Of a stretch of 64,000 nt of DNA, positions 29,100 through 50,315 are shown in pieces. Below the pieces are notes generated by a model. It worked only from the letters and a program-made list of their open reading frames with translations. It had not been told where the DNA came from and did no database searches. The stretch's first letter is position 1; every line of letters begins with the position of its first letter. The DNA is from Hemileia vastatrix. Taxonomy: Eukaryota > Basidiomycota > Pucciniomycetes > Pucciniales > Zaghouaniaceae. The position numbers were made by a program, and so were the translations under genes. The stretch is taken from positions 28,986,150-29,050,149 of the forward strand of contig JASXTE010000014.1 of assembly GCA_030280995.1 (NCBI GenBank). The letters run 5' to 3'.

Positions 29100-31379
29100 T
29101 TACATTGTTAGCTCCATTTTTTTCCTTTGAATCTTATACATGCTGAATTCTATACTTCCTTGTACAAAATAATTCAAAACATTTACTTCATTTTGCTGCC
29201 CCATTCTATACAGCCGATCAACAGCCTGTTGCTCAACTGCTGGATTCCAATTTGGCTCCTATTTCAACATTGAACATATAAAAAATTTAATATTTTTGTT
29301 CTTAATATGAAATAAAAGACATTGAGCTCACCATTATATATACATTTTGAGCACACCTGAGATCTATACCCACTCCTTCAGCCTGAATTGTTCCAAACAA
29401 AACTTGGCAATTTTTATTAAAATGGAATTCATGCATATTTTTGTCTCGCTTTGTCCGGCTGAGTTCACCCGTAAGCTGGGTATACCTAATATTGTGGTCA
29501 TCTAAAGCCATTTTTATTCTATTTTGAAATATTAGAAAATTGTTTTTAATAAGCCAACACAATTTTGTAAAACAATTCATTATAGAATCACTTACATCTG
29601 CAAAAAGTCTGCAAAGTTGGAGAATATAACAGCTTTTGGAAAATTTATATCCCTTTCACCAGACAAAAAGTTTTTTAAGTGGCTTATAAGATGACAAATC
29701 TTTGCGGAATGCTGCCAGGTGAAATCAAAAGTTGGAGTTTCATCCAGATTTTCGTAGATTGGATGGTTGCAGAATTTTCTTAAAATCATCAGCTCTCTTA
29801 GAAACTCAGATGAGTCCCAAGGGAAGTCAGTGCTTCTGGAGGGCCCATATTGCTCAGTGATTCCTTCTTGAAGCACATCAAGTTTAGACCTCCATGGATC
29901 TGCTAATTGAACCGATATCCCCCTTTGAATCTTTTTTGGAAGAGACAAAATTGCATCCTTTGTTCTACGTAGGCTTATGACTTTCATTAAGTGATTGATT
30001 GATTTAATAGAATTAGCCTTTCCTTTTTGCAAACCTGGAAAAAGGAAATTCTTCCATAACCAGTCTTCTTGCCAATTTTCGATTCTAAGAAAAAATATGA
30101 GACTTTGAAGGTCAGTGGGCCTGTTCTGAAGTGGAGTTCCAGTCAAGCATAGTCGGTGTTGGGATTCCAAGTCAAATATTGTTTGAGCCCTCTGCGAGTA
30201 AGGATTTTTAATGTAACTAAAAGAATATTTATAAAAATTGATTATAAAAATTAAGTTTTAAGTTTTAGATATAGAAATGGGCACTAACTGAGCTTCATCT
30301 AAAACAATTCTATACCAAAAGAGCATTTGAGTCACCAGTATATTTTTTTGGCTTTGATTTTTTGACATCGTTGGGCTAGCTATTTCATAGGTTGTTAAAA
30401 CAATAGCAGTGTCCTGTAGCTCATTGACATTAGTATTTTGACAATCCTTCCCATAAAGAACCTTGAAAGGAAGCGCATTATCTTCAAAGTGCACACTTAT
30501 TTCATTGATCCAATTTGATAGTGTTGCCAGGGGGCATATAATCAGTGTGGCTGAACTCCAATTAATACCTTCTTGATTTTCTGATACCTGGAATTGTCTT
30601 GCTTCACCTTGAGTTGCACTTAAAAGAGAAAGAGTTGAAAGTGTCTATCCCAAACCCATATCATCAGCAAGTATTGACCCGTTTCCTTCAGGCGTTAATT
30701 GATTGTTATGAAACTGATCTTTATAGTCATCGAATCCAGTTCTAAGCCAATGGTTGTCCTGGTGCCTCCACATGATATCCAACTTTTCCTTTAACATTCA
30801 TTCATTGTCAATCATAAAATTTATTGCTTGAAGTTGATGTGTTTTGAGAACTGTTTTGATTCCTTGGATAAGTTGATCAGCTTTCCAATCTTGAGTACTC
30901 TGAGATATTTGGAAAGAGCCTTCAAAAATTACATGCGGGATATTAAAAAAGATAGTGGAGTCGTAGTTCAGGATTGGACATAAATCGATTTGTGCAGAAG
31001 AAAATGCTTCTTTAGCAAGACTGATTAGTGTACTTGAAGAAAAGAGGCATCCACAAAGTTGATACTGATTACCAAAAACTGGAACCAAGTAAGCATGAAA
31101 ATAGAAAGGCTTCATAGGATTCAAGGCACTTCTTTGGTTTAAATGGTGAGATCCAGAGCCAATGTCACCCAATAGTGGTCCAATGTGCTGACTCTGCACT
31201 TGAGAAAGATTACCGACAAGGGTTGGTTTTCTTTCTTCAAATAGTCCAAAAATATGAACATTTGAATGGCCTCGCTGTAAAATTGTGGGGGTCGGTGAGT
31301 TTTGAAATCTTGAAATTACATTCATATAAATTTGATTGATTGTTATTGAGAACTGTCCAACACATCTGAGACTTGACAT
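29100..31379 (-). pseudogene. SNF2-family helicase/ATPase with a stop at the Walker-A lysine
   Basis: Reads ILADDMGLG-stop-TLSTL where motif I should be GLGKT, so the ATP-binding lysine codon is TAG (30645-30647). A TGA at 30798-30800 lies about 50 codons earlier. Otherwise the frame is well preserved. Motif II DEAH is created by splicing (LDEA, intron, H-YIKNP), motif III region is LCLTGTPLQN, and the C-terminal lobe shows LSRTKRDK, GTIQAEGVGIDL (motif V) and QQAVDRLYRMGQ (motif VI). Introns of roughly 50-90 bp fall after DEA, after FADFLQ and after NVYIM. The final stop is at 29100-29102. The intact form would be a nucleosome remodeller or translocase of the Rad5/HLTF-like SNF2 group; the N-terminal 190 residues are unrecognised. 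The 3' end faces gene X'. Confidence 0.8.
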
Positions 31380-36780: not shown

Positions 36781-39700
36781 TCATCCCCTTCTTTTGGGAA
36801 ATAAGTCACTATTGGAAGTATAAGGCTTAAGCAAAGAAATGAGAGAAACAGGGTGTTTCCTATCATATGGAGAATACAATACAACTTCTACTGCATTATC
36901 TCCAACCATTCTTATAACAACAAATGGTCCTACAAAAGGATCTTTTAATTTGTTGTTACCTTGTAGATTGAAATGGAAAGTAGAAATAAACACTTCATCA
37001 CCCTTGTTAAATGTGTATTCTTAATGGGATTCATCCCTTCTTTTCTTTTCATATTCAAATTCTTTATTAATACAGCTTTGAGCATGTTTTCTGCATAGCT
37101 GTTACATTTGCATAAAAGATTTTACACCAGGGTGTATTTCCAAATTAGGTAATTTATTATTAAGAATCTGAGAAGAAGTATTTGGGACTTAACCTAACCA
37201 AAGCTTAAAAGGCTTTTTCTCAGAGACAGAATGAACAGCACTATTATATGCAAATTCAAGATCAGGCAATAGAGTGACCCAGTCATGAGTAAATCTGTCA
37301 TTGTCTTTATATTCTAATCCAAAGGCACAATACCTTCTAATAATATCTTCCAGAGTTTGAATCTTTCCTTTAGCTAGACCATAAGTCTGAGGATGGTGAG
37401 CTGTAGACAACTTTAACTCACAGCCACAAATATCCATCAAAGAGGTTTAAAACTCAGAAGTAACATTTAGATCACTATCAGAGATAATGGCTTTTGGAAA
37501 TCCAATAATAATGAAAATGTAAGTCCACCATAAGAAAGCTAAGTCCTTTTGTGGATACATCTTTATGGGTGGGAATAAACTTGCACATTTTTGTGAATCT
37601 ATCCACTATTACCCAACAAGAGTTATAACTGTCTTTACCTGCTACAGGAAGACCAGTGACAAAATCCATGTTAATGATTTTCCAAGAAGCATCAGGTGCT
37701 TTAATATGTTGTAATAACCCTGCTCTTTTACCTGTCAATATTTTAGATTTCTGGCAGGAATCACAAGATTCAAAATATAATTTTGTATCTTCAGACATAT
37801 AAGCCCACCAAGCAGTGTTTTTGATTCAAATTAATGTCTTTTCAAGATCGAAATAACCAGCTAATATGTCATCATGACAAAAATTGAGGATAGTTTCTTT
37901 CATAGAAGGAGGAATCACAATTACATTAGTAAGCTTTCATCTATAATATATATAACCATCTTCAATAGAAAACTTTCCTTCAACCAAAGCATTTTGATAC
38001 TTTTCAGGAAGAGTTTTAATCAATGCTTGAATTGAAGAATTCTTAGGATCATTTAAGATAGTAACTAAATTATTTAAATCACAATCTTTATCATATGAAT
38101 CCAGAATTAATTGTAATAACTCTTCTTCCATATCAACTATAAATATACCATGGATATGAACAGTATCATCTACAGGTACATAAGAAGGATTGGAGTCATT
38201 ATTTGGCAGAGGCAATCTTGACAGCATATCAACATTGGAGTGAAAATTTCCAGCCCTATGGATAATTGTCATTCTTCCTCTGTATTCTTGAACAGCAAGC
38301 TGCCACCTGAACATATGTCTATTAGGTGTTTTCAGATCTAAGAGGGACTTCACAGCACTACAGTCAGTTACCAATTCAAAATTTTGGTCATCTAGGTAGT
38401 AATGAAGCTTCTCAAGAGCCCAAAAAACTGCTAAGCACTCTAATTGAGTGGCACCATATTTCAATTCACTATTTCACAAGGTTCTTGAAATATAACAAAT
38501 TACAACCTCTGAGGATTTATAATTAATAATTTGTTTCTGGTGAAGGACAGCACCCAGACCAACAAAGCTGGAATCTGTATACAGGACAAAAGGTTTGTTT
38601 AAATCTGGAAGAGCTAAGATAGGAGCTGTCATTAAACAAAATTTTAATGCATCAAAAGCTTTTTGACAGTCAATATTCCAGATGAATTCAACATCTTTCC
38701 TAGTTAGTTTGGTAAGAGGCAAAGCTATGACCTGATAATTTTTAATATCTTGTCTATAATAGCCACACATACACAAAAAACTTTGGATTTCTCTTACAGA
38801 AGTTGGTGCCTTTAAATTTTGAATTGCAGCAACTTTGTTGTGGTCTACACAAATTTGTAGGCCTGACACAACATGGCCAAGGACTTCTAAAGATTGAAAG
38901 CCAAATTTTCACTTTTTTAAGGAAAATGTCATTGTCAGCCTAAATATCCTTAGGACTGAGTATTTCTTATGCTAAAATAAGATAACCTTAAGTAGATTAA
39001 GCTTATATCTTAAAAATAAGGTTAAAATAATAATATATATTATTTTATTATATATATATATAATTATTATTCTATTATATAACTTATAATAGTTTAAATA
39101 GCTTATCAATGGCCTAATAATACTTATTAGGGTGTTAATGGAGTCATAATATACTTATCTTAAGTGATATGAAGTAATTATTGACATACATAAGCTTATA
39201 TGTATACATAAATCTCATATTCAGTGAAATATGCGGTATATTATGTATATTTAGGTATATAAGTGGGTTTTAGCCCCTTAATAGCCTATAAAATTTTTTT
39301 TTCTGCTTATTTTAGGTCATATGGAAGAAATCAGTGGACTCACAACGCCTACAGAAGCATAGACACCTATATCAGGCGCATACACCCAGTTTGGACAACT
39401 AAAATTACTTCCTTGGATGGTTATTCACGGATTTATGGGTTGTAAGGATGTTTCTGGGTTAATGTGGATGCTTGGGGATGTTATTGGGGGCTTGGACGTT
39501 TTATTTTTTTCCTTTATATGCTTTTAGTTTCATTAAATCTCTTTTTGATTATTTATTTTACCTGTTTCTTTATGGTATCCGCTTTTATCTGGGTTTTCTA
39601 TTTATGGTATGGATCAGTGTTATTATTAATAGTGATGGAGGGTCCTTACTGGAGGTCTAGGTGTTGAAACTGCTTGAAGTGGACGCAATGGGGAGGTGAT

Positions 39701-41871
39701 GGGCCCTCACAGTGCTGTAATTGCCAGGGATAGCAGTGACATCATCTGGATTGAAGGTATGTGCACTCCAGTGGATTAGGGTATAAGTAAGGAGGAATTT
39801 TGACGGTTATTAATCATCAATCAATTACTACAACTCCAACAAACACTACTATACAATTATTAACCCTTAGAAATATATTATAAAGCCACTATAAATTGAT
39901 TTTATCTTTAGATAAAGCTATAACTATATTTTATTCATCTATTTTCCACCACTAGCACGCACTTAAATCCAAGTATTGTGAGTTTGACTTGAGTATAACT
40001 ATTTTATTAGTCTTCCCCTGAGGTTTAATCACTAAATCATTTATTAATAAGTAATAGGACCATAAATAAACACTATTATGTCATACTTATATACTAGACT
40101 ATACTGACAGTCATATTGATTTCATCCATTCTTTGAAAAACTATATTTAAATGAATCATATGTTCATCAAAAGTTTTAGAAAAAACTATGATATCATCAA
40201 TATACACCATAAGCCATCCTTCATTTATTTCCTGATGGAAAGTGTTATCCATTACTTTTTGGAAAACTGAAGGTGCATTTTTAGGGCCAAATGGCATTCT
40301 AACATACTTATATATGCCCATATGAGTAGCAATAAGCAAAAAATTCTGAGAATTTTTCTCAACTGGAACTTGATGATACCCTTTATTACCATCCAGTCAA
40401 CTAATAAATTTTTTACTTGCAAGGTAGCATGTATTGAAATAATTCTGGGTAAAGGATAAATATCATCAACTGTATAAGTGTTTAATGCTCTGTAATCTCC
40501 AAATAATCTAGCCTTATCCTTTTCATAAGAAATCAAGACTGGGGAGATGACACAATATTTGGGGATGACATCCACTTTCTCAATGATATTCATTTTTAAT
40601 AATGTGGAAATATTATCTTCAATATCCTATCTTTTTGTTGGAGAAGCAGGATATGGGTTTTTCTTAAGACTAGGAAGAATATCACTCAAGTTACAGGATA
40701 AGGAAATTTTCATTTCTTCCTGAACACTTCCTAAGACATGAGAACCATAAGCAAAATCCATAGGGAAGGAGGTAATTGAGACAATTATAGAATCCTTTTG
40801 TTCACTAGTTAGCTGAACACCAAAAGAAGCAGTATTTATTTCATTTAATAAATCATTCATCTCAATTGTTAGTCTGCCTTTGCACTGGATCAGTGAGTTA
40901 CAAGACTTTAACAGATTCCCAGAAGGTTTTCTAGGGAAGAAAATTTTGAATTTTCTTTTGCAATTCAATCCCAAGGTGAATCAATTATTTTCTGGGTCCA
41001 ATTTCACACCAAACATTTTTAAAATATCATTACCCATAATAAAACAATTGCTTAAATTATCATTTTTCATGACAACAAATTCACAAATAGATCTGACAAA
41101 ACCACCATTATATTTGAAGAGTACAGAGATTTTGTATTTGCCAATAGGAAACAAGGTAGAACCATACCTTCTCCATTTTCCAGAAGTCATAGATAACAAT
41201 TTACTCAAATAATCCTTATCTAATGAAGCTAAGGCTCTTTCAGACACTACACTTCCTCCAGCACCAGAGTCAAGAACTACATCAAAATTTTTACCATTAA
41301 TGATAACAGGTGCTTTCAAAGGAGATATGGCTATAGAATTGTTAGTAATATCTTTAATTATTTCAGCATTTACTACTGAAGTTAAATCCAATACACATTC
41401 TTCAGATATATTATCTAAATAATGGACATCCCATTCCAAAATTAAAACATCTTTAACAGATTCATTTTCATAGGAGATATTACTTTCACAGTCACTAGAA
41501 GAATTGTTTATATCAATTTCAGCCTCATCAGTGTCTTCATTTTGTTCAACAAGATGAATTTTCTTGTCACAAACATGACCCTTTTGCCATGATTTTTTAC
41601 ATTTATAACAAGTATTTGTTGCATATTTTTTAGGTTCAACTGGGGAAGAGGGTTTACCAAATTTTTCTGGGGGCTTTGTAGAGGGTTTATTTTGATCATG
41701 ATAAGATTTTCCAAGGTAATTCTTTGGTTCATATCTATGGTTGAGCAGTACCTCATTACAGATATTAATGAAAGAAGAATGTTCCCTCACATGCTCAGTT
41801 CTAGCTAAATTTAAATCTCTAAAAGAATTTGGTAATTTATACAAGATTTTATCTCTCCAAATATCATAATC
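36781..41871 (-). pseudogene. pol: G2 pol and 3' gag (Ty3/Gypsy), degenerate
   Basis: In minus-strand order: gag C-terminus with the zinc knuckle CYKCKKSWQKGHVC (about 41580-41620); protease VVLDSGAGGS near 41250; RT pieces with DYRALNTYT, FGPKNAPSVFQK and the YIDD box (about 40200); then, beyond a solo LTR, RT/RNase H connection (38869-38474) with YTDSSFVGLG and RNase H to 37937; integrase CDSCQKSK, NMDFVTGLP (about 37680) and AHHPQTYGLAKGKIQ (about 37360); and a C-terminal segment to 36781. Several frameshifts and stop codons separate the blocks. No chromodomain was noticed at the end, unlike G1. Confidence 0.8.
38933..40109 (+). mobile_element. Solo LTR inserted in the G2 reverse transcriptase
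   Basis: Begins TGTCAGCCTAAATATCC, ends ATACTGACA, and is flanked by GTCAT on both sides (38928-38932 and 40110-40114). It splits the RT domain just after the YIDD block. A TATA-like GTATATAAGTGGG lies near 39253. Short plus ORFs inside it are not convincing genes. The first 28 bases match the partial LTR at the left window edge. Confidence 0.85.
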
Positions 41872-41875
41872 CATC

Positions 41876-42651
41876 TGTCACGCGCCATGTGACACTCGAA
41901 GCAAAATTAACTCAACAAATCAATAATATCGAGTCCTAAATCTATACTCGAAGCGCAGAAAGCAATTCTCCATAGCAACTGTGATTTTTCCTTTGTGTAC
42001 TGCTATTTAACTGCGCTAGCCTAAACTCTAAATCTAAATTAGTCAATCTCCCAATAGGGTACCTTAGTCCTTTTCAATAAGCGACGCACAGCGCTAGGAT
42101 CAACAAAATAGTATAGTAGTAGTTTTTTTCATTAAAGTTTTGTTAATTAATTAAAAAGGGACAAAATGAGCATGAACGGATATTTAGTAGAGAGGGTCTA
42201 AGTGTATGTTAGTAATGGTCAATGGAACGGGAATGCTGTGATGGAAGGGAGGTCAATGGGAGGAGGAAAAAAGGATATAAAAGGAGTTGGGTATTTGGTT
42301 CGATATTCCTTAGAATTAAATTATAATATCGTATTTACATTAATAGTGGTAAATCCTTAAAAGTTAAATCATTGTTATTGTATCTTTCTTTTACCTTCTC
42401 AATATTCATTTCTAAATCCTAAATTTTTGATTATTGAGTTTCCAACCCTTCGTGAGATTTTAAGAATTATTATTACCTTGAAACTAGTTTATAATTCTTC
42501 TCGAATAGAACCTCGAACCTATAGCTATTACTTTGAGTGACCTTCAAATCATTTCCTTGAATCATTCCTCTGTGCTTTGAAGAAGTTTCTAAAATCCCTC
42601 ATCTCACTTACAGGAACATCCTCGACCTTGTGCGTAGGTCGTCTGGTGACA
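41876..42651 (+). repeat. 5' LTR of G1
   Basis: 776 bp, TGTCACGCGCC to CTGGTGACA. A TATA-like GGATATAAAAGG lies near 42273. It is followed by GTATAATTTAATTC, with no obvious tRNA-complementary primer site; self-priming, known for Tf1/sushi chromoviruses, is possible but not demonstrated. Confidence 0.9.
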
Positions 42652-42722
42652 GTATAATTTAATTCTCCGTAGTTCTCATTCTTTGCACTACTACGTCTTT
42701 TTAGGTGCTTCTAAAATTTTAA

Positions 42723-43910
42723 ATGGCACCTGTTCAACGCACTCCTCCTACGGGCGCTACTACTAGAGCTCGCGCTAGAGGCAGGCCAACAGCCACAAGG
42801 TCTGTTTCTCGCACTCACTCTTTGGAACCACTTGACCTTAGGGAACGGCAACATTCAGTTCAATCTGTAGAAGACATTCCACAAGATTTTGAGGATTCTA
42901 GTGATGAAGAAGAAGGAGAGGATACAATGCATGAGGCACCATCCGCCCCTGCCAATCACCCTTCTGGCCAATCCTCAGAACCGGGACCATCTAACTCTCT
43001 GGAAGATTTCATGAGACTTTTTATGAAAACCCTTTCAAATCCAACGTCTTCAGAGGGATCTAAGTTCAAAACTCCTTCTATGAAATCTCCTGACAAATTC
43101 GACGGAGATCACCCCGACAGATTGCAACCCTTCTTGCAAACCTGCAAGCTACTGTTCCATAATGACCCTCGAACATTTAACAGCTACCGATCAAAGGTTG
43201 TTTACGCTTCTTCATTCCTAGCCGGGAAAGCAGCAAGATGGTTTGAACCTTATCTACTCATGCTTTCTTCGACAGAAACCCACTTACTTATCAATAATTG
43301 GGAAAAGTTTGAAGACCAACTTTTTACGTTGTTTGGGGACCCTAATGAAACGGACAACGCAGAAATTGAACTTGATTTTCTTCGCATGAGTGATAATGGT
43401 AAAGCCTCTGAATATATCTCGAACTTCAGAGCACTTCAAACTCGAGTAGGTTGGAATGATGCTGCCCTTAAGTATCATTTCAGGAAAGGACTTCCTTCGA
43501 GGATTCTGGATCAATTAAATCTTCACGGTCAGAAGATGACTACTTTAACGGATTTAATGGATCGAACCCTCGAACTTGACGGCGTTTATCAAGGACAACT
43601 TCAACATCGTCGATATGCCAACAAATCTCAAGGTCTAAATTTTAAATAAGGACCTTCTTCACACCCACTACCAAATCAATCCTCCTCGACTCAATCCAAA
43701 CCCAATAAGGGAAAGGATAAACCTCAACCAAAAGGGTCGACCCCAGGCGATATCAGAAAAGTACTGGATCCTAAAGGGGAACTTAAAGAAGCTGAAAGGA
43801 AGAGAAGAGCAGATAATGGGTTATGTATGTATTGTGGGGGTAAGCACAAGTTGGAAGACTGTGTAAAGTTGAAGGAAAGAGAAGGTACTAGTTCGAAGTC
43901 AAAAAACTAG
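42723..43910 (+). pseudogene. gag: G1 gag with one in-frame TAA
   Basis: Starts at ATG 42723 (MAPVQRTPPTG). An Arg/Ser-rich N-terminus is followed by an acidic patch (SSDEEEGED), the capsid-like region (FDGDHPDRLQPFLQTCKLLF and FRKGLPSRIL) and, after a TAA at 43647-43649, the same frame continues to the zinc knuckle CMYCGGKHKLEDC and a TAG at 43908. The knuckle is CX2CX3HX4C, one residue shorter than the usual spacing. The single stop could be a CAA-to-TAA transition. About 395 codons in total, normal for this class. Confidence 0.85.
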
Positions 43911-43912
43911 TA

Positions 43913-46900
43913 GATAGTTTACTTGTGTGCAAAGAGAACTATCTTATCTCTCCCAGTGCACAGAACCTCCATGTCTTAAGGACTGGAGTTGCCTTAAACC
44001 GCTTGAGATTCATTCTTTTTAAGGAGGATATCCCCTTCAGTTGTCTTATAGACTCTGGAGCTTCAATTTCTTTTGTTAGTTTATCTTTTGCCGAAAAGCT
44101 TCAACTAACATTTACAGATATCGATCGAACTACCATCTATTTGGTCGAATCAGAGGAACCCAAATATTGGGTAAGTAAGAAAGTTTTATGGGTTTTCAAC
44201 TTTCCGAATTTTACCCCCTTCGAGTGGGAATTATCAGTCTTGGACGCCACAAGAATGGACGATACCATTCTTGGCCATGACTTTTTAACGCATTGGAATC
44301 CGGAAATTGATTGGACTAGGGGATTGATCACCCCACGCTCTAAGTATATTTCTGATTCTTCAATGCAGGTCAATAGGGAGTTAAACAACCCGCCTGACAA
44401 CGTCCTGCTAGAGGACAAATCTCTGCCAGATGACTTGCAAGCATCTGTACCTTCTTTAAATGAGAAATTGGCTAACCCTTCTAGCTCGATGAATTCACTC
44501 AAAGAGGATTTAAATTGCCTCGAAGTAATCGAATTATGCTCTCTCAATACAGGTATCCCCTCGACAGATACTCTCGAAGATGAAGAGGACAACCAAATAA
44601 ACGGTGAAGACATCAAATAAACTCTACCGGAAATCTACCACAATTTCCTCAATGTTTTCTCAATCCGCAAGGCCGATAAGTTACCACCTCATCAACCCTA
44701 CGACCATCAAATAGAGTTGATAGGCCCAGTACCTCCGGCAGGTCCTGTCTATTCTTTATCGAAGGACGAATCTCAAGTTCTTCAAGACTACATTGCAGAG
44801 AATGTAGCCAAAGGTTTCATCAGAGCCAGTAAATCTCCAACCAGCTCCCCTGTCCTCTTTGTAAAAAAGAAGGACGGTAGTCTTAGGTTGTGTGTTGACT
44901 ATAGAAAGCTCAACACAGTCACAAAGAAGAATGCATATCCTGTTCCTCCTATGTCATCACTTCTTACCCTTTTCAATGGTGCTAATTTCTTTTCTAAAAT
45001 TGATCTTAGAGGCTCTTACAATCTTATTCGCATTGCGGAAGGTCATGAACCACTGACTGCAATGCGCACTAGATTTGGTAGTTTTGAATATTTAGTTATG
45101 CCTTTTGGATTATGTAACGCACCTTCAACTTTTCAAACTTTTGTTAATGATATCTTTCAAGATGTTGTTGAACAATTTGTAGTCGTCTATTTAGATGATA
45201 TTTTAATATTCTCGAAAACACTGGATGAACATATTCATCATGTTCGACAGGTCCTAAATCGTCTTCGAGATCATGGTCTCTACGCCAAGCATAATAAATG
45301 CGAATTCCACCTCAAATCAATTGATTTTTTGGGTTTTACGTTGTCCACTGACGGTTTAGTCATGGATGACAAAAAAGTCCAGAAAATCCTGGAATGGCCT
45401 GAGCCAAAAAACATCAAATCACTCCAAGGATTTTTGGGTTTTGCAAACTTCTATAGAAGATTTATTAAAGATTACTCTAAAACTATTTCCAATCTTACTT
45501 CTCTTCTTAGAAAAGATATTCCTTTTGTTTTTACTTCTACAGCACAAAAGGAATTCGAAGCACTAAAAACGGCGTTCACCACAGCCCCAATTCTTTGGCA
45601 TTTTGATCCTTCTGCCTCGACAATAGTTGAGACAGATGCGAGCGATTATGCTATTGCAGGGGTCATCTCCCAATTAAATCCTGAAACAAATTAGTTTCAT
45701 CCTGTTGCTTTTGAGTCACGCAAACTCATAGCCGCGGAATTAAATTATGAAATTCATGACAAAGAGCTTTTAGCTATTATCCATTGTCTTAAAAAATGGC
45801 GTTCTTTTCTTCTCAGCCTAGATAGTCCTTTTCAAATTTTAACAGATCACAATGCTTTGAAATACTTCATGTCTTCTAAAGTGTTAACCAGGCGTCAAGC
45901 CAGGTGGGCTGAATTTTTGTCTGAATTTTCTTTCTCTATTTCCTATCGCCCAGGAAAAAACTGCAATGTCCCAGATATCTTGTCACGTTGGGACGACGTT
46001 TACCCACAGCGGGGGGACGCATTTGCTGACAAGAACCCAGCAAATGTGCAATCAATCTTCAACGAATCAATGTTAACGACTCATCAACTTAATTCGATGA
46101 CAATTCAATCTTTTCCAAATCCACTATCCAACATCCTCGAAGCTCAGTCAAAGGACGATTATTGTTTAGGGTTAAAAGACAAAATACTCTCAAAGCAAGG
46201 GGCCAAAAGATTTAGTATTGAATCAGGTCTATTAGTCTTCGAAGGTAGAGTAGTCATACCCGACAACAATGAGATAAAATTATGGATTTTCAATAGTCGA
46301 CATGATTCTCCGTTAGCTGGTCATTTTGGGGTTGATAAAACCTACCAGTTAATAGCGAGGGATTTCTTCTGGCCAGGTATGACCAAGGAAATCAAGGCCT
46401 ATATAAAAGCTTGTTACGAATGTAATAGGAATAAGGCTCCCCGTCACCGGAAGCATGGGTTGCTTCAACCACTTCCTATTCCCTCTAAACCTTGGGAATC
46501 TTTATCGATGGATTTCATTTCTCAACTTCCTATTTCTAATGATTTTGATGCTATATTAGTAATAGTAGATAGATTTTTAAAAATGTCTATTTTTATTAAA
46601 ACCACTACTACTGCTACAGCAGAAGATTTGTCAAAATTGTTTTTAGAATATGTATTTTCTAAACACGGCTTACCAAATTATATTATTTAAGATAGAGGCT
46701 CATTGTTTGTATCCACATTCTGGACCCAACTGTGTCGACAACTCAATATCACGAGGAATCTCTCCACGGCCTATCACCCTGAAACCGATGGTCAAACAGA
46801 AAGAGTTAACCAAATCCTCGAACAATATCTTCGAATGTATGTTAGTTACCAACAAAACGATTGGACCACATTGCTACCATTGGCCGAATTTGCTTATAAT

Positions 46901-47557
46901 AACTCGACTCATTCTTCGACACGACAATCTCCCTTCGAAACCATTTATGGACGACATCCTCGATTCAACTCAATTCATGTAGGAACTAATCATCCTGCAG
47001 AACATTATCTTCGAACTATATCACGACTCCAAGAAGAACTTAAAACAAATTTGGAATCAGCGATTCGAAGATACAAGGAACAGGCCAACAAACATCGACA
47101 ATCTGCTCCTTCCTTTAAACCAGGCGACAAAGTATGGCTCGATGCACGAAACATCCGAACAACAAGACCATCAAAGAAACTAGCTGAAAAGCACTTGGGA
47201 CCGTTCGAAATCGACTCTGAAGTCTCTAAAACTGCATTTTGACTCAAGTTACCTCCTAAATGGCAGGCGATTCACCCTGTTTTCCATGTATCTCTCCTGG
47301 AACTGGCTCGAGAAATATACCCGGGCAAGAACCAACCCCCTCCGGAACCGGTCGAAGTAGAAGATCATCTAGATTGGGAAGTAAGTCGTATCCTTGATTC
47401 AAGAATATGCAAGGGGAAACTTCAATACCTTGTGGAATGGGAAGGCTTCCTCAATGACTCAGACAAAACATCCTGGGAACCAGCCATCAATGTTTTTAAC
47501 GCTCCTGAACTCCTAAAATCTTTTCATGCGAAATATCCTTTAAAACCAAAACCTTAA
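43913..47557 (+). pseudogene. pol: G1 pol with chromodomain and four in-frame stops
   Basis: One continuous frame of about 1,215 codons, shifted relative to gag. Domains in order: protease CLIDSGASISFVS (about 44040); RT with VDYRKLNTVT, FGLCNAPSTFQ and YLDD (about 45190); RNase H with ETDASDYAIAG and [10 protein letters not shown]; integrase zinc finger [10 protein letters not shown]...CYECNRNK, core [20 protein letters not shown] and HPETDGQTERVNQ; and a chromodomain near the end (WEVSRILDSR, YLVEWEGF, SWEPAINV). Stops are TAA 44618, TAG 45692, TAA 46688 and TGA 47240. Two fit TGG-to-TAG and CGA-to-TGA transitions. There are no frameshifts. The chromodomain would direct integration to particular histone marks. 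Confidence 0.9.
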
Positions 47558-48474
47558 AATTTCTTTACTTAAATTTTTTTTTCTTTTTCTTTCTTTCTTT
47601 AAAATCTAAAACACCTCTTAAATTTCTTAGCCTTGTTTTCTTTTTTCTCTCTTCTTTTTCTTTCTTCTCCTTCTATAAATTTCCTCCAAAACCAACTAAA
47701 AATAAAATCAAAATTAAAATTAAATACAATAAAATAAAATAAAATAAAATCAAAATTAAAATTAAATAAAATAAAATTAAATTAAATTAAATAAAATAAA
47801 ATAAAATAAAATAAAATAAAATAAAATAGAATAAACATAAATAATAAAATAAAATAAAAAACTCATAAATCTCTCTAAATATTTTCATTTTTTTTCTTCT
47901 TCAATTCTTTAAATACATTCTTTTCTTAAATTTAAAATTCTCTTCAAAAATTTCTCTTTCAAAAAATTTATTCTCTCTTTTAAAGACTTTCTTTCCTTTG
48001 AATCATCAAATCCTGTATGGCACGACCATTTCCTCGAACTTAACTTCAACCCCTGAATCTCCCTATAATAATTCTTCAAAACAAATAAATCTTCTTTTCA
48101 AACTCTCTTAAATTCTACACTTTGTTTTTTTTTTAAAAATCCTCAATTTAACAAACTCATCTCAATCACAAAACCGTTTCTTTTTTCTCTCTCTTTTCTT
48201 ACGTAAAAATTTTCCTTTTAAAAACACTAAAACTTCCTTCAATTAAAACAACCTTTTTTCTTTCTTTAAAAATCTTCTTTCAAATTCTAAAATTTTTTAT
48301 TTAAAACTTCTTTTTTCTTTTTTTTTCTATTCTTTTTCTCTCTCTCAAATCTTGTAAAATTAACAACATTCACCTACAATAAAAAAAAATAATACTAATA
48401 ATAAAATAAAATAAAAATAAAATAAAACTAAAATACAATTTTTTTTTTCTACTTCTTTCCATCTCCTTTTAATT
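47558..48474. repeat. AAAAT-repeat and pyrimidine-rich spacer in G1
   Basis: Includes long ATAAA/ATAAAATAAA microsatellite runs (47700-47860, 48380-48430) and TTTCTTTCTTT tracts. It separates the convergent pol and antisense accessory genes and probably supplies both polyadenylation regions. Confidence 0.7.
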
Positions 48475-49426
48475 TCAAATTTTTTCTTTTAATTTTTCTC
48501 GAACCAATCTTTTCATTTTCTCCAAAACTACCCTTATCTCCTTCCTGCATTTATCAAATACCTCCTCCTCTCCTACCGGAACCACCTCTCCAATCTCCAA
48601 GAGCTCCTCCGCCACGTCGAAGGAAGCAGCCTCAATAATAGCGTTGACCTCCCCACATAGTTCTTCCGCGAACCTTACTCGTTGACCTTGACGAGGTTTC
48701 TTCGACCACACCTGGTCCAGGGTGTCTTCGGGCTCTTCAACTACTTCCGTGGCTGGAGGGTTTGCCTCAGTTGGTATAACCGGCGCAGGCTCCGCAATCT
48801 GCTCTTCCAGGTTATTCGATGTCTAAAACAAGACTCATCAGTAACTTCATCCTTGAAATAAAACAATTAAAACTTACCTCAAAGATGGTATCAGGCTCCA
48901 GAAATAACCTGGGCGCCACTTCGACTTCTACCTCTCTCTCTTCCTCATCGTCCTTGATGACCACCCGACGTTTCTTGGGTGCCCGCCCTGGAACAGGGAC
49001 TTCATCTTCATCCTCCTCCACCAATTCGTCGACCTCTTCCTTGACACCTCGCTTTGAACTTGTGGCCTGGGTTACCCAGGTTGAGATCTCGTTGTTCATC
49101 TCCTTATCATTTTCCCCCACCGATTGTTCATCTTCAATCGAGACATCCCAAATGTCTTCGACCAGCTCTTTGGTCTTCAGAACTACCCAAAATTTTGTTT
49201 TTGTAAATCGTTTTTTGATTTCCGCGTTCTTTGTCAACGCATCGCACGCCACTCGCCGCCAACGGCAAAACTCGCATTTCTGGCGAGGGCCTTGAGTCGC
49301 CGTACTTTCGACACAGAAATATTCCATGCTTTCACAAGCCGTGAAAGTCTGTGACAACTGTTGTGTGATTATTCCCCCATCCGCTTTAGGGTGTGGAGGC
49401 GTCGGTGTGGGGGTAGGGCAGTTCAT
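48475..49426 (-). CDS. Antisense accessory gene inside G1, two exons, nuclear-type Cys motif protein
   Basis: Transcribed against gag-pol. Exon 1 49426-48878 starts at ATG (MNCPTPTPTPP); a 55-bp intron (48823-48877, GTAAGT..TTTTAG) joins in phase 0 to exon 2 48822-48475, about 298 residues in all. A TATA box (TATAAAAA, 49516-49523) lies about 90 bp upstream of the ATG, a few bases from the 3' LTR. Features: CEFCRWRRVAC (CX2CX6C, half of a Zn2Cys6-like pattern), an acidic region (ELVEEDEDEVP), a nuclear-localisation-like APKKRRVVIKDDEEER, and a C-terminal region with QGQRVRFAEELCGEVN and a basic helix MKRLVREKLKEKI. Alternating acidic and basic stretches suggest DNA or chromatin binding. It has no internal stop although gag-pol has five. 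Base composition is richer in G and C than the surroundings. The family is not recognised; silencing suppression or transcription control are only guesses. Confidence 0.75.
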
Positions 49427-49514
49427 TATAAAATAATAATTGAGAGATGAGGGAAAAAGTATTAGACAAGGGAAATTAGTGTGGGAAGATGGTTCAAGCT
49501 CAACGGAGTTCGCG

Positions 49515-49530
49515 TTTTTTATACCCGGGC
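49515..49530 (-). promoter_or_regulatory. TATA box for the antisense gene in G1
   Basis: The minus strand reads CCCGGGTATAAAAAACG immediately inside the 3' LTR. It is well placed to start a transcript running into the ATG at 49426 and away from the LTR. Typical polypurine tract sequence is not directly at the LTR edge; a purine-rich run lies at 49441-49487. Confidence 0.6.
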
Positions 49531-49533
49531 ATC

Positions 49534-50310
49534 TGTCATGCGCCACGTGACACTCGAAGCGAAATTAACTCAACAAATCAATAATATCGAGTCCTAAATC
49601 TACACTCGAAGGGCAGAAAGCAATTCTCCATAGCAACTGCAATTTTTCATTTGTGTACTGCTATTTAACTGCACTAGCCTAAACTCTAAATCTAAATTAG
49701 TCAATCTCCCAATAGGGTACCTTAGTCCTTTTCAATAAGCAACGCACAGCACTAGGATCAACGAAATAGTATAGTAGTAGTTTTTTTTCATTAAAGTTTT
49801 GTTAATTAATTAAAAAGGGACAAAATGAGCATGAACGGATATTTAGTAGAGAGGGTCTAAGTGTATGTTAGTAATGGTCAATGGAACGGGAATGCTGTGA
49901 TGGAAGGGAGGTCAATGGGAGGAGGAAAAAAGGATATAAAAGGAGTTGGGTATTTGGTTCGATATTCCTTAGAATTAAATTATAATATCGTATTTACATT
50001 AATAGTGGTAAATCCTTAAAAGTTAAATCATTGTTATTGTATCTTTCTTTTACCTTCTCAATATTCATTTCTAAATCCTAAATCTTTGATTATTGAGTTT
50101 CCAACCCTTCGTGAGATTTTAAGAATTAATATTACCTTGAAACTAGTTTATAATTCTTCTCGAATAGAACCTCGAACCTATAGCTATTACTTTGAGTGAC
50201 CTTCAAATCATTTCCTCGAATCATTCCTCTGTGCTTCGAAGAAGTTTGTAAAATCCCTCATCTCACTTACAGAAACATCCTCGACCTTGTGTGTAGGTCG
50301 TCCGGTGACA
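49534..50310 (+). repeat. 3' LTR of G1
   Basis: 777 bp from TGTCATGCGCC to CCGGTGACA. It aligns end to end with the 5' LTR; several differences fall at CpG sites (for example GCGACGCACAGCG against GCAACGCACAGCA). Confidence 0.9.
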
Positions 50311-50315
50311 CCATC

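What the first reader, a model, noticed from the sequence alone, without database searches (positions are those of the whole stretch)
48475..49546. Independent two-exon antisense gene inside a chromodomain Gypsy retrotransposon
Seen: a TATA box next to the 3' LTR, an ATG, a phase-0 55-bp intron and about 298 open codons on the strand opposite gag-pol, with a CX2CX6C motif, an NLS-like basic run and acidic stretches. gag-pol of the same copy has five stops, but this gene has none. Inference: it is a selected accessory gene, perhaps acting on chromatin or silencing, and possibly able to act for related elements in trans. Antisense accessory genes are known in some plant and animal LTR elements; I do not recognise this protein.
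Basis: partly seen in the sequence, partly recalled or inferred. Interest (0 to 1): 0.9.

Follow-up and report, generated by a model that had tools for sequence, protein, structure and literature searches.

The report
Conserved antisense gene in fungal retrotransposon
A jumping element with many copies in a large fungal genome, probably that of a rust fungus, carries on its opposite strand a small spliced gene for an unknown six-cysteine protein, and the gene shows signs of having been kept by natural selection while the element spread.

Summary
The gene structure is real. On the minus strand, between pol and the 3' LTR of a complete chromodomain Ty3/Gypsy element (41876-50310, 5-bp target duplication), two GC-rich exons joined by a canonical 55-bp intron encode 298 residues behind a TATA box. 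The element's genome holds thousands of candidate copies; 40 were scored. In the 39 others, splice sites are kept in 39, lengths in 38, and the whole gene is intact in 26. Private changes are neutral (observed/expected N:S 1.00). Non-CpG changes shared between copies are depleted of amino-acid changes (0.16, p=0.0006, 15 sites); RT of the same copies gives 0.38. The motif is six cysteines, CX2CX6CX12CX2CX6C, invariant in 38 of 38 in-frame other copies; the window copy has lost one. No database relative was found. Antisense genes are already described in plant Gypsy elements and in the chromodomain element Boty of Botrytis, so this is a new variant of a known kind. Best reading: a selected nuclear, probably zinc- and DNA-binding, regulator of the element. 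Transcription and function are untested.

The parts
41876..42651 (+). 5' LTR of the element
   Evidence: LTR pair alignment, TGTCA...TGACA ends; 20 substitutions and 1 indel against the 3' LTR
42312..42325 (+). 14 nt in the LTR complementary to the sequence just inside the 5' LTR; sits downstream of a TATA box, so perhaps the start of the element RNA
   Evidence: exact 14/14 match
42653..42666 (+). likely self-priming primer-binding site
   Evidence: reverse complement of 42312-42325
42723..43646 (+). gag, up to its first stop
   Evidence: Pfam Retrotrans_gag 5.3e-11
43892..47554 (+). pol: protease, RT, RNase H, integrase, chromodomain; four in-frame stops in this copy
   Evidence: Pfam RVP_2, RVT_1, RT_RNaseH_2, Integrase_H2C2, SH3_Tf2-1, Chromo 9.1e-13 on separate pieces; stops
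47555..48474 (.). AT-rich spacer with AAAAT-type repeats between pol and the antisense gene
   Evidence: 19% GC; repeats; sequence
48475..48822 (-). antisense gene, exon 2 (stop codon at 48475-48477)
48823..48877 (-). antisense gene, 55-bp intron GTAAGT...TTTTAG, phase 0
   Evidence: GT-AG kept in 39 of 39 other copies
48878..49426 (-). antisense gene, exon 1, with the six-cysteine motif (residues 28-61, first cysteine missing here) and a basic run before an acidic tail
49427..49515 (-). presumed 5' leader of the antisense gene
   Evidence: between the TATA box and the ATG; 16 of 107 promoter-plus-leader columns vary among 39 other copies, but outside CpG it varies as much as the exons
49516..49523 (-). 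TATA box of the antisense gene
   Evidence: TATAAA present in 40 of 40 copies
49544..49549 (.). CACGTG palindrome at the LTR edge, upstream of the antisense TATA box
   Evidence: sequence; present in 35 of 40 copies
49534..50310 (+). 3' LTR; probable upstream region of the antisense promoter
41871..41875 (.). target site duplication CCATC, left
50311..50315 (.). target site duplication CCATC, right

Best explanation
This is an accessory gene of a chromodomain Ty3/Gypsy family in a fungus, probably a rust. It sits antisense between pol and the 3' LTR and is read, as inferred from sequence, from its own TATA promoter at the inner edge of the 3' LTR. Its intron is not lost during retrotransposition because the genomic RNA carries it in reverse complement, where these splice sites do not exist (established logic). 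Shown: the structure, its conservation in the copies read, and constraint on the protein. Inferred: the product is a nuclear protein with a six-cysteine zinc cluster, a basic run and an acidic tail. It binds DNA or chromatin of the element (LTR or AT-rich spacer) and regulates transcription or silencing of the family, so that lineages which lost it stopped spreading. Comparable ideas have been put forward for antisense genes of plant Retand and Grande elements.
For: Conservation: 39 other copies, with differing flanks (2 of 741 flank pairs alike over >600 bp), keep GT-AG (39/39), the 549+55+348 layout (38/39) and the ATG (38/39); 26 of 39 are wholly intact. In a wider best-first list, 126 of 150 exon-1 matches (window copy included) have no stop. 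Selection: singletons N/S 65/23, observed/expected 1.00; shared non-CpG 5/10, observed/expected 0.16, p=0.0006. RT yardstick, shared non-CpG 11/9, 0.38, p=0.034. Motif: the six cysteines are invariant in 38 of 38 in-frame other copies. Coding signature: GC by codon position 59/37/52%, AT-rich intron. Promoter: TATAAA in 40 of 40. The gene is part of the element: RT lies at the expected distance in 38 of 39 other copies, two of them partial.
Against: There is no RNA or protein evidence. No homologue, fold or significant domain was found, so zinc and DNA binding are inferred from spacing alone. The selection test rests on 15 non-CpG shared sites, in the copies nearest to the window copy, and treats sites as independent. 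Shared CpG sites show no constraint (0.87). One overlapping plus-strand frame whose third positions face those of the gene gives the same signal (p=0.0075); outside that shadow ORF the direction is kept but p=0.075. Synonymous codon choice does not resemble that of gag-pol (score -0.144) and some wrong frames score higher. Outside CpG the leader (9.1%) and intron (11.3%) vary hardly more than the exons (8.4% and 8.2%). 11 of 39 other copies carry a premature stop, and the window copy lacks a cysteine.
Confidence: 0.6

Rival explanations
1. Selection acts mainly on antisense transcription, not on the protein: convergent minus-strand RNA makes double-stranded RNA or interferes with gag-pol RNA and so tunes copy number; the ORF is secondary.
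For: TATAAA in 40 of 40 copies. Antisense RNA inhibits Ty1 and may restrict Tf2 (passages), and a regulatory role is discussed for plant elements.
Against: The constraint follows the codon frame: shared non-CpG changes are 5 amino-acid changing to 10 synonymous, and four of the five other frames show no such shift. Six cysteines and the intron are kept. Outside CpG the leader is not more conserved than the exons.
Confidence: 0.15
2. A captured host or foreign gene that hitch-hiked with a recently successful master copy; its intactness reflects youth, not need.
For: LTR pairs are 96.0-99.4% identical in 18 of the 20 copies tried (20 of 39 fetched). GC3 of 52% and codon use differ from gag-pol, as a captured gene might.
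Against: Pure hitch-hiking predicts neutral N:S also among shared changes; 0.16 was found at non-CpG sites where private changes give 1.11 (1.00 over all sites). No related protein was found in databases, though host genes of this genome were not searched separately.
Confidence: 0.12
3. The plus-strand shadow ORF (48819-49295, 158 aa, serine-rich) is the real coding frame.
For: It shows the same shared-versus-private shift because its third positions face those of the gene.
Against: It is interrupted in 15 of 39 sequences against 8 of 39 for the longer minus exon 1. It covers about half of the conserved stretch and reads across the minus-strand intron.
Confidence: 0.02
4. Chance open frame.
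For: Low-complexity acidic and proline-threonine stretches; exon 1 alone has a 3% chance over six frames (61 of 2000).
Against: 0 of 2000 shuffles leave both exons open in frame; layout kept and protein constrained in other copies.
Confidence: 0.01

Closest known systems
Boty-like retrotransposons of Botrytis cinerea with antisense gene brtn (Zhao et al. 2011; seen only as a title in reference lists; passages in PMC8365987 and PMC4227169, text of PMC7264820)
   Same: Fungal element with gag, RT, integrase and chromodomain and an extra antisense gene, listed among antisense ORFs between pol and the 3' LTR
   Different: Ascomycete host. The original paper was not read and the brtn sequence was not at hand, so homology, introns and motifs could not be compared.
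Plant antisense additional ORFs: Grande gene23, RIRE2, Retand ORF4/TRP28, PvRetro13
   Same: Antisense, between pol and the 3' LTR; long spacer often with tandem repeats in Retand; own promoter and nuclear product in Grande; kept in most copies; regulatory role proposed
   Different: Retand is stated to be a non-chromovirus lineage; the others were not checked. No Pfam match to their domains was listed here.
HBZ of HTLV-1 (antisense retroviral protein)
   Different: That HBZ is a bZIP regulator is recalled; only a functional analogy, no sequence test.
VANC anti-silencing proteins of Arabidopsis VANDAL transposons
   Same: Element-encoded protein that removes methylation from its elements; targets often form tandem repeats (abstract). 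The present family decays mainly at CpG and has a repeat-rich spacer.
   Different: Plant elements of another class (recalled); the sequence match is not significant (VANC21, E=0.63).
Fungal Zn(2)-Cys(6) binuclear cluster proteins
   Same: Six cysteines with spacing inside the family's range (range recalled); residues 51-63 align to the start of the Pfam profile
   Different: Pfam PF00172 E=2.7, 8.6 bits against a cut-off of 21. The basic stretch lies between the fifth and sixth cysteines, not between the second and third as in the known family (recalled).

Membership tests
Antisense additional ORF between pol and 3' LTR (aORF-3R) | Lies between pol and 3' LTR, opposite to gag-pol | tested here: met
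Antisense additional ORF between pol and 3' LTR (aORF-3R) | Present in most copies with conservation like other element proteins | tested here: inconclusive
   Kept in the 39 other gene copies examined, with constraint not weaker than that of RT (difference not tested), but copies were chosen by having the gene; the share of family members that lack it was not measured.
Antisense additional ORF between pol and 3' LTR (aORF-3R) | Transcribed from its own promoter | not testable with these tools
   TATA box kept, no RNA data
Chromodomain Ty3/Gypsy (chromovirus) | RT before integrase, chromodomain at the end of pol, LTRs and short target duplication | tested here: met
Self-priming (Tf1-like) elements | Start of the RNA complementary to the primer-binding site next to the 5' LTR | tested here: inconclusive
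   14-nt exact complement placed after a TATA box; the RNA start itself was not determined
Fungal Zn(2)-Cys(6) cluster (PF00172) | Score above the curated cut-off | tested here: not met
   8.6 bits against 21 for one other copy; not listed for the window copy
Fungal Zn(2)-Cys(6) cluster (PF00172) | CX2CX6CX5-12CX2CX6-8C spacing (recalled) | tested here: met
   CX2CX6CX12CX2CX6C in 38 of 38 in-frame other copies; not in the window copy
VANC anti-silencing proteins | Sequence homology | tested here: not met
   Only against solved structures: E=0.63
brtn of Boty | Sequence homology | not tested
   Sequence not at hand; two protein searches listed no relative of any kind

The most novel reading that the evidence does not exclude
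The gene encodes a fungal transposon's own anti-silencing factor: a six-cysteine protein made from the opposite strand that binds the element's LTR or repeat spacer and strips or blocks CpG methylation or heterochromatin. It may act in trans, and so help explain how one Gypsy family reached very many copies in a genome that seems to methylate it.
Probability: 0.12. Interest if true: 0.85.

Novelty: new variant of a known kind. Interest (0 to 1): 0.5.

Why it matters
Antisense genes in LTR retrotransposons are known, but their roles are not. Here is one in a fungus with a spliced structure, a clear motif and a measurable signature of protein-level constraint, in an abundant family. That makes the open question of what such genes do testable with a 298-residue protein and rust RNA and methylation data.

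Tried and rejected
Protein relatives: two searches of 5.8 billion proteins gave none, although the RT of the same element finds thousands. I do not take this as proof of novelty: fast evolution, splicing and left-out records of the own genome would give the same result. L001 looked like a relative at 55% over 52 residues, but the match lies opposite a long open frame in a contig whose genes look like those of a T4-type phage (my reading); rejected as chance. RT and gag scans of viral contigs gave no relatives. Structure of exon 1 alone: pLDDT 35, not used. The gag-pol stop contrast was rejected as evidence of selection. Codon choice like that of gag-pol was tried as a coding test and did not favour the true frame. 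A first neutral model included some host flank; it was redone with a shorter LTR stretch, with nearly the same result (2.83 and 2.82). The test over all shared sites (p=0.00013) is not relied on because it mixes CpG and other sites. Distant subfamilies could not be reached: only best-scoring copies are returned, and a search with a second RT did not complete.

Rows dropped before counts: L002 is the window copy itself and is not among the 39 others; it is the window copy's row. L019 (frameshift) was left out of N/S counts. Two partial RT copies were left out, and one copy had no RT at the place. Columns with three or more bases were skipped in N/S counts.

Full report
What is there. The finding lies in a complete LTR retrotransposon. 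The LTRs are 41876-42651 and 49534-50310, ends TGTCA...TGACA, flanked by the 5-bp duplication CCATC. They differ at 20 sites and one indel; of 16 transitions, 11 change a CpG of one LTR and two more form a TG/CA pair (my count from the list). Separate pieces of the plus strand match gag, protease, RT, RNase H, integrase and chromodomain families. Five stops interrupt gag-pol. On the minus strand, next to the 3' LTR, two open exons of 549 and 348 bp are joined by a 55-bp GT-AG intron and give 298 residues. Exon GC is 50% and 49%, intron 27%, spacer 19%. In dinucleotide shuffles of the exons 13.3 in-frame stops are expected and 0 of 2000 leave both open; exon 1 alone is open in its frame in 1 of 2000, and some frame of six is open over 182 codons in 61 of 2000. 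Codon choice does not resemble that of gag-pol, and some wrong frames score higher on that measure, so it neither helps nor settles the matter.

The gene has no stop in 298 codons and gag-pol has five in 1525; the difference is not significant (Fisher p=1.0). By my arithmetic from the LTR difference (about 1.3% per copy) and the share of changes that make stops (about 5%), about half a stop is expected in the gene by neutral decay.

Host. Of the RT matches ranked 2 to 20 in the protein search, 18 of 19 are from the rust Austropuccinia psidii, up to 64% identical. The window's genome has 747.6 million bases. I infer a rust fungus; the species is not established.

Other copies. The genome search found 3720 candidates for the gene region and scored 40: the window copy and 39 others at about 97%. 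All 39 others were read. They sit at different sites: 2 of 741 pairs of flanks are alike over more than 600 bp. The intron borders are GT-AG in 39 of 39; exon and intron lengths are unchanged in 38 of 39 (one has a 1-bp deletion); the start codon is present in 38 of 39; 11 of 39 have one premature stop; 26 of 39 are wholly intact. TATAAA is present in all 40 copies. A search with the exon-1 protein scored 150 of 6813 candidates: by my reading of the rows they cover 182 or 183 of 183 residues at 91-100% identity, and 24 of 150 contain one stop. That list is ranked best first and so leans to intact copies. LTR pairs were compared for 20 of the 39; 18 could be paired, at 96.0-99.4% identity, one of them over 324 bp only.

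The motif. Residue 28 is cysteine in 38 of 38 in-frame other copies and phenylalanine in the window copy. The pattern in the family is therefore CX2CX6CX12CX2CX6C (residues 28, 31, 38, 51, 54, 61), with all six cysteines invariant in those 38 copies. I had written this down as an inference from the window copy's spacing before the copies were read (note). The spacing is that of fungal zinc binuclear clusters (range recalled), but the Pfam profile does not accept it (E=2.7, 8.6 bits, cut-off 21), and the basic stretch lies between the fifth and sixth cysteines.

Selection. Among 39 sequences (window copy plus 38 in-frame others), changes seen in one copy are 65 amino-acid changing and 23 synonymous. 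With mutation rates taken from private changes in the adjoining LTR, 2.82 to 1 is expected, so these are neutral (observed/expected 1.00). Changes shared by two or more copies are 38 and 34 (Fisher p=0.008 against private ones). Split by context, shared non-CpG changes are 5 and 10 against 3.14 expected (ratio 0.16, p=0.0006), while shared CpG changes are 33 and 24 against 1.58 expected (0.87, not significant), as recurrent methylation-type mutation would give. In four of five other frames no such shift is seen; in the frame whose third positions face those of the gene it is (p=0.0075), as geometry demands. The ORF in that frame is interrupted in 15 of 39 sequences against 8 of 39 for minus exon 1, and outside it the gene keeps the same direction (non-CpG 23/9 private, 2/5 shared, p=0.075). 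RT of the same copies (37 sequences used, two partial ones dropped) gives 11 and 9, ratio 0.38, p=0.034; without the CpG split RT shows no significant shift (p=0.31). So the gene is constrained during spread about as RT is, perhaps more (the difference was not tested), and decays freely once inserted. Outside CpG the promoter and leader (9.1% of columns) and intron (11.3%) vary hardly more than the exons (8.4%, 8.2%), so plain variability alone would not show the constraint.

Pol and trans action. Of the window's two stops inside the stretch examined, one is shared with one other copy (2 of 38 sequences) and one is its own (1 of 38). Other stops are shared by 4 to 8 sequences, and 27 of 39 sequences, the window copy included, have at least one stop in 44501-45798 (some are partial). 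In RT, five shared stop columns are not CpG. Lineages with broken pol may thus have been moved by others; whether the antisense product also works in trans is open.

How it most likely works. An antisense gene with an intron can persist in a retroelement because the genomic RNA carries the intron reversed. The promoter lies at the inner edge of the 3' LTR, with a CACGTG site in the LTR in 35 of 40 copies. No relative or significant domain was found for the protein, and the single-sequence model is useless. From the cysteines, the basic run and the acidic tail I infer a nuclear DNA- or chromatin-binding regulator of the element. The nearest functional ideas are Grande gene23 and Retand TRP28 in plants (PMC7264820, parts 1 and 2 of 3 read; PMC11963269, abstract and discussion), HBZ (PMC10186651, abstract) and, more boldly, VANC (PMC5735166, abstract).

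Known and new. [quoted passage not shown] Boty-like elements have a chromodomain and brtn (passages, PMC4227169; PMC8365987). A survey of fungal chromodomain elements has basidiomycete clades Puccy1 and Puccy2 and mentions an additional ORF of unknown function in a figure legend (passages, PMC2864245). A 2025 study of rust transposons has no occurrence of the word antisense in its main text (PMC12210899). Searches of the open-access library for antisense genes in fungal, basidiomycete or rust elements showed me no report of one in a basidiomycete, but only the first 20 (10) of each list were seen, as titles and starts of abstracts, and subscription papers are not covered. I therefore call it a new variant of a known kind.

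Noticed in passing
42312-42325 and 42653-42666: A 14-nt stretch just inside the 5' LTR is the exact reverse complement of an LTR stretch downstream of a TATA box, as in Tf1-like self-priming elements (passages).
   Followed up: partly
49500-49533: No polypurine tract touches the 3' LTR on the plus strand (sequence there is CCCGGGCATC); the nearest purine run of 9 or more is 49449-49459, inside the antisense leader. How second-strand priming works here is unclear.
   Followed up: no
41876-42651 and 49534-50310: 11 of 16 transitions between the LTRs change a CpG (my count), and 67 CpG columns of the gene show 526 TG/CA cells against 2126 CG cells over 40 copies, which suggests cytosine methylation of the family.
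   Followed up: partly
44501-45798 in the other copies: Some pol stops are shared by 4 to 8 of 38-39 sequences, hinting at spread of pol-defective lineages with help in trans.
   Followed up: partly
37937-41877, minus strand: Remains of another retroelement (RNase H match; weak protease match below the cut-off) into which this element seems to have inserted; its frame runs up to the LTR edge.
   Followed up: no
29595-30257, minus strand: SNF2-related domain (E=1.9e-22), perhaps a host gene.
   Followed up: no
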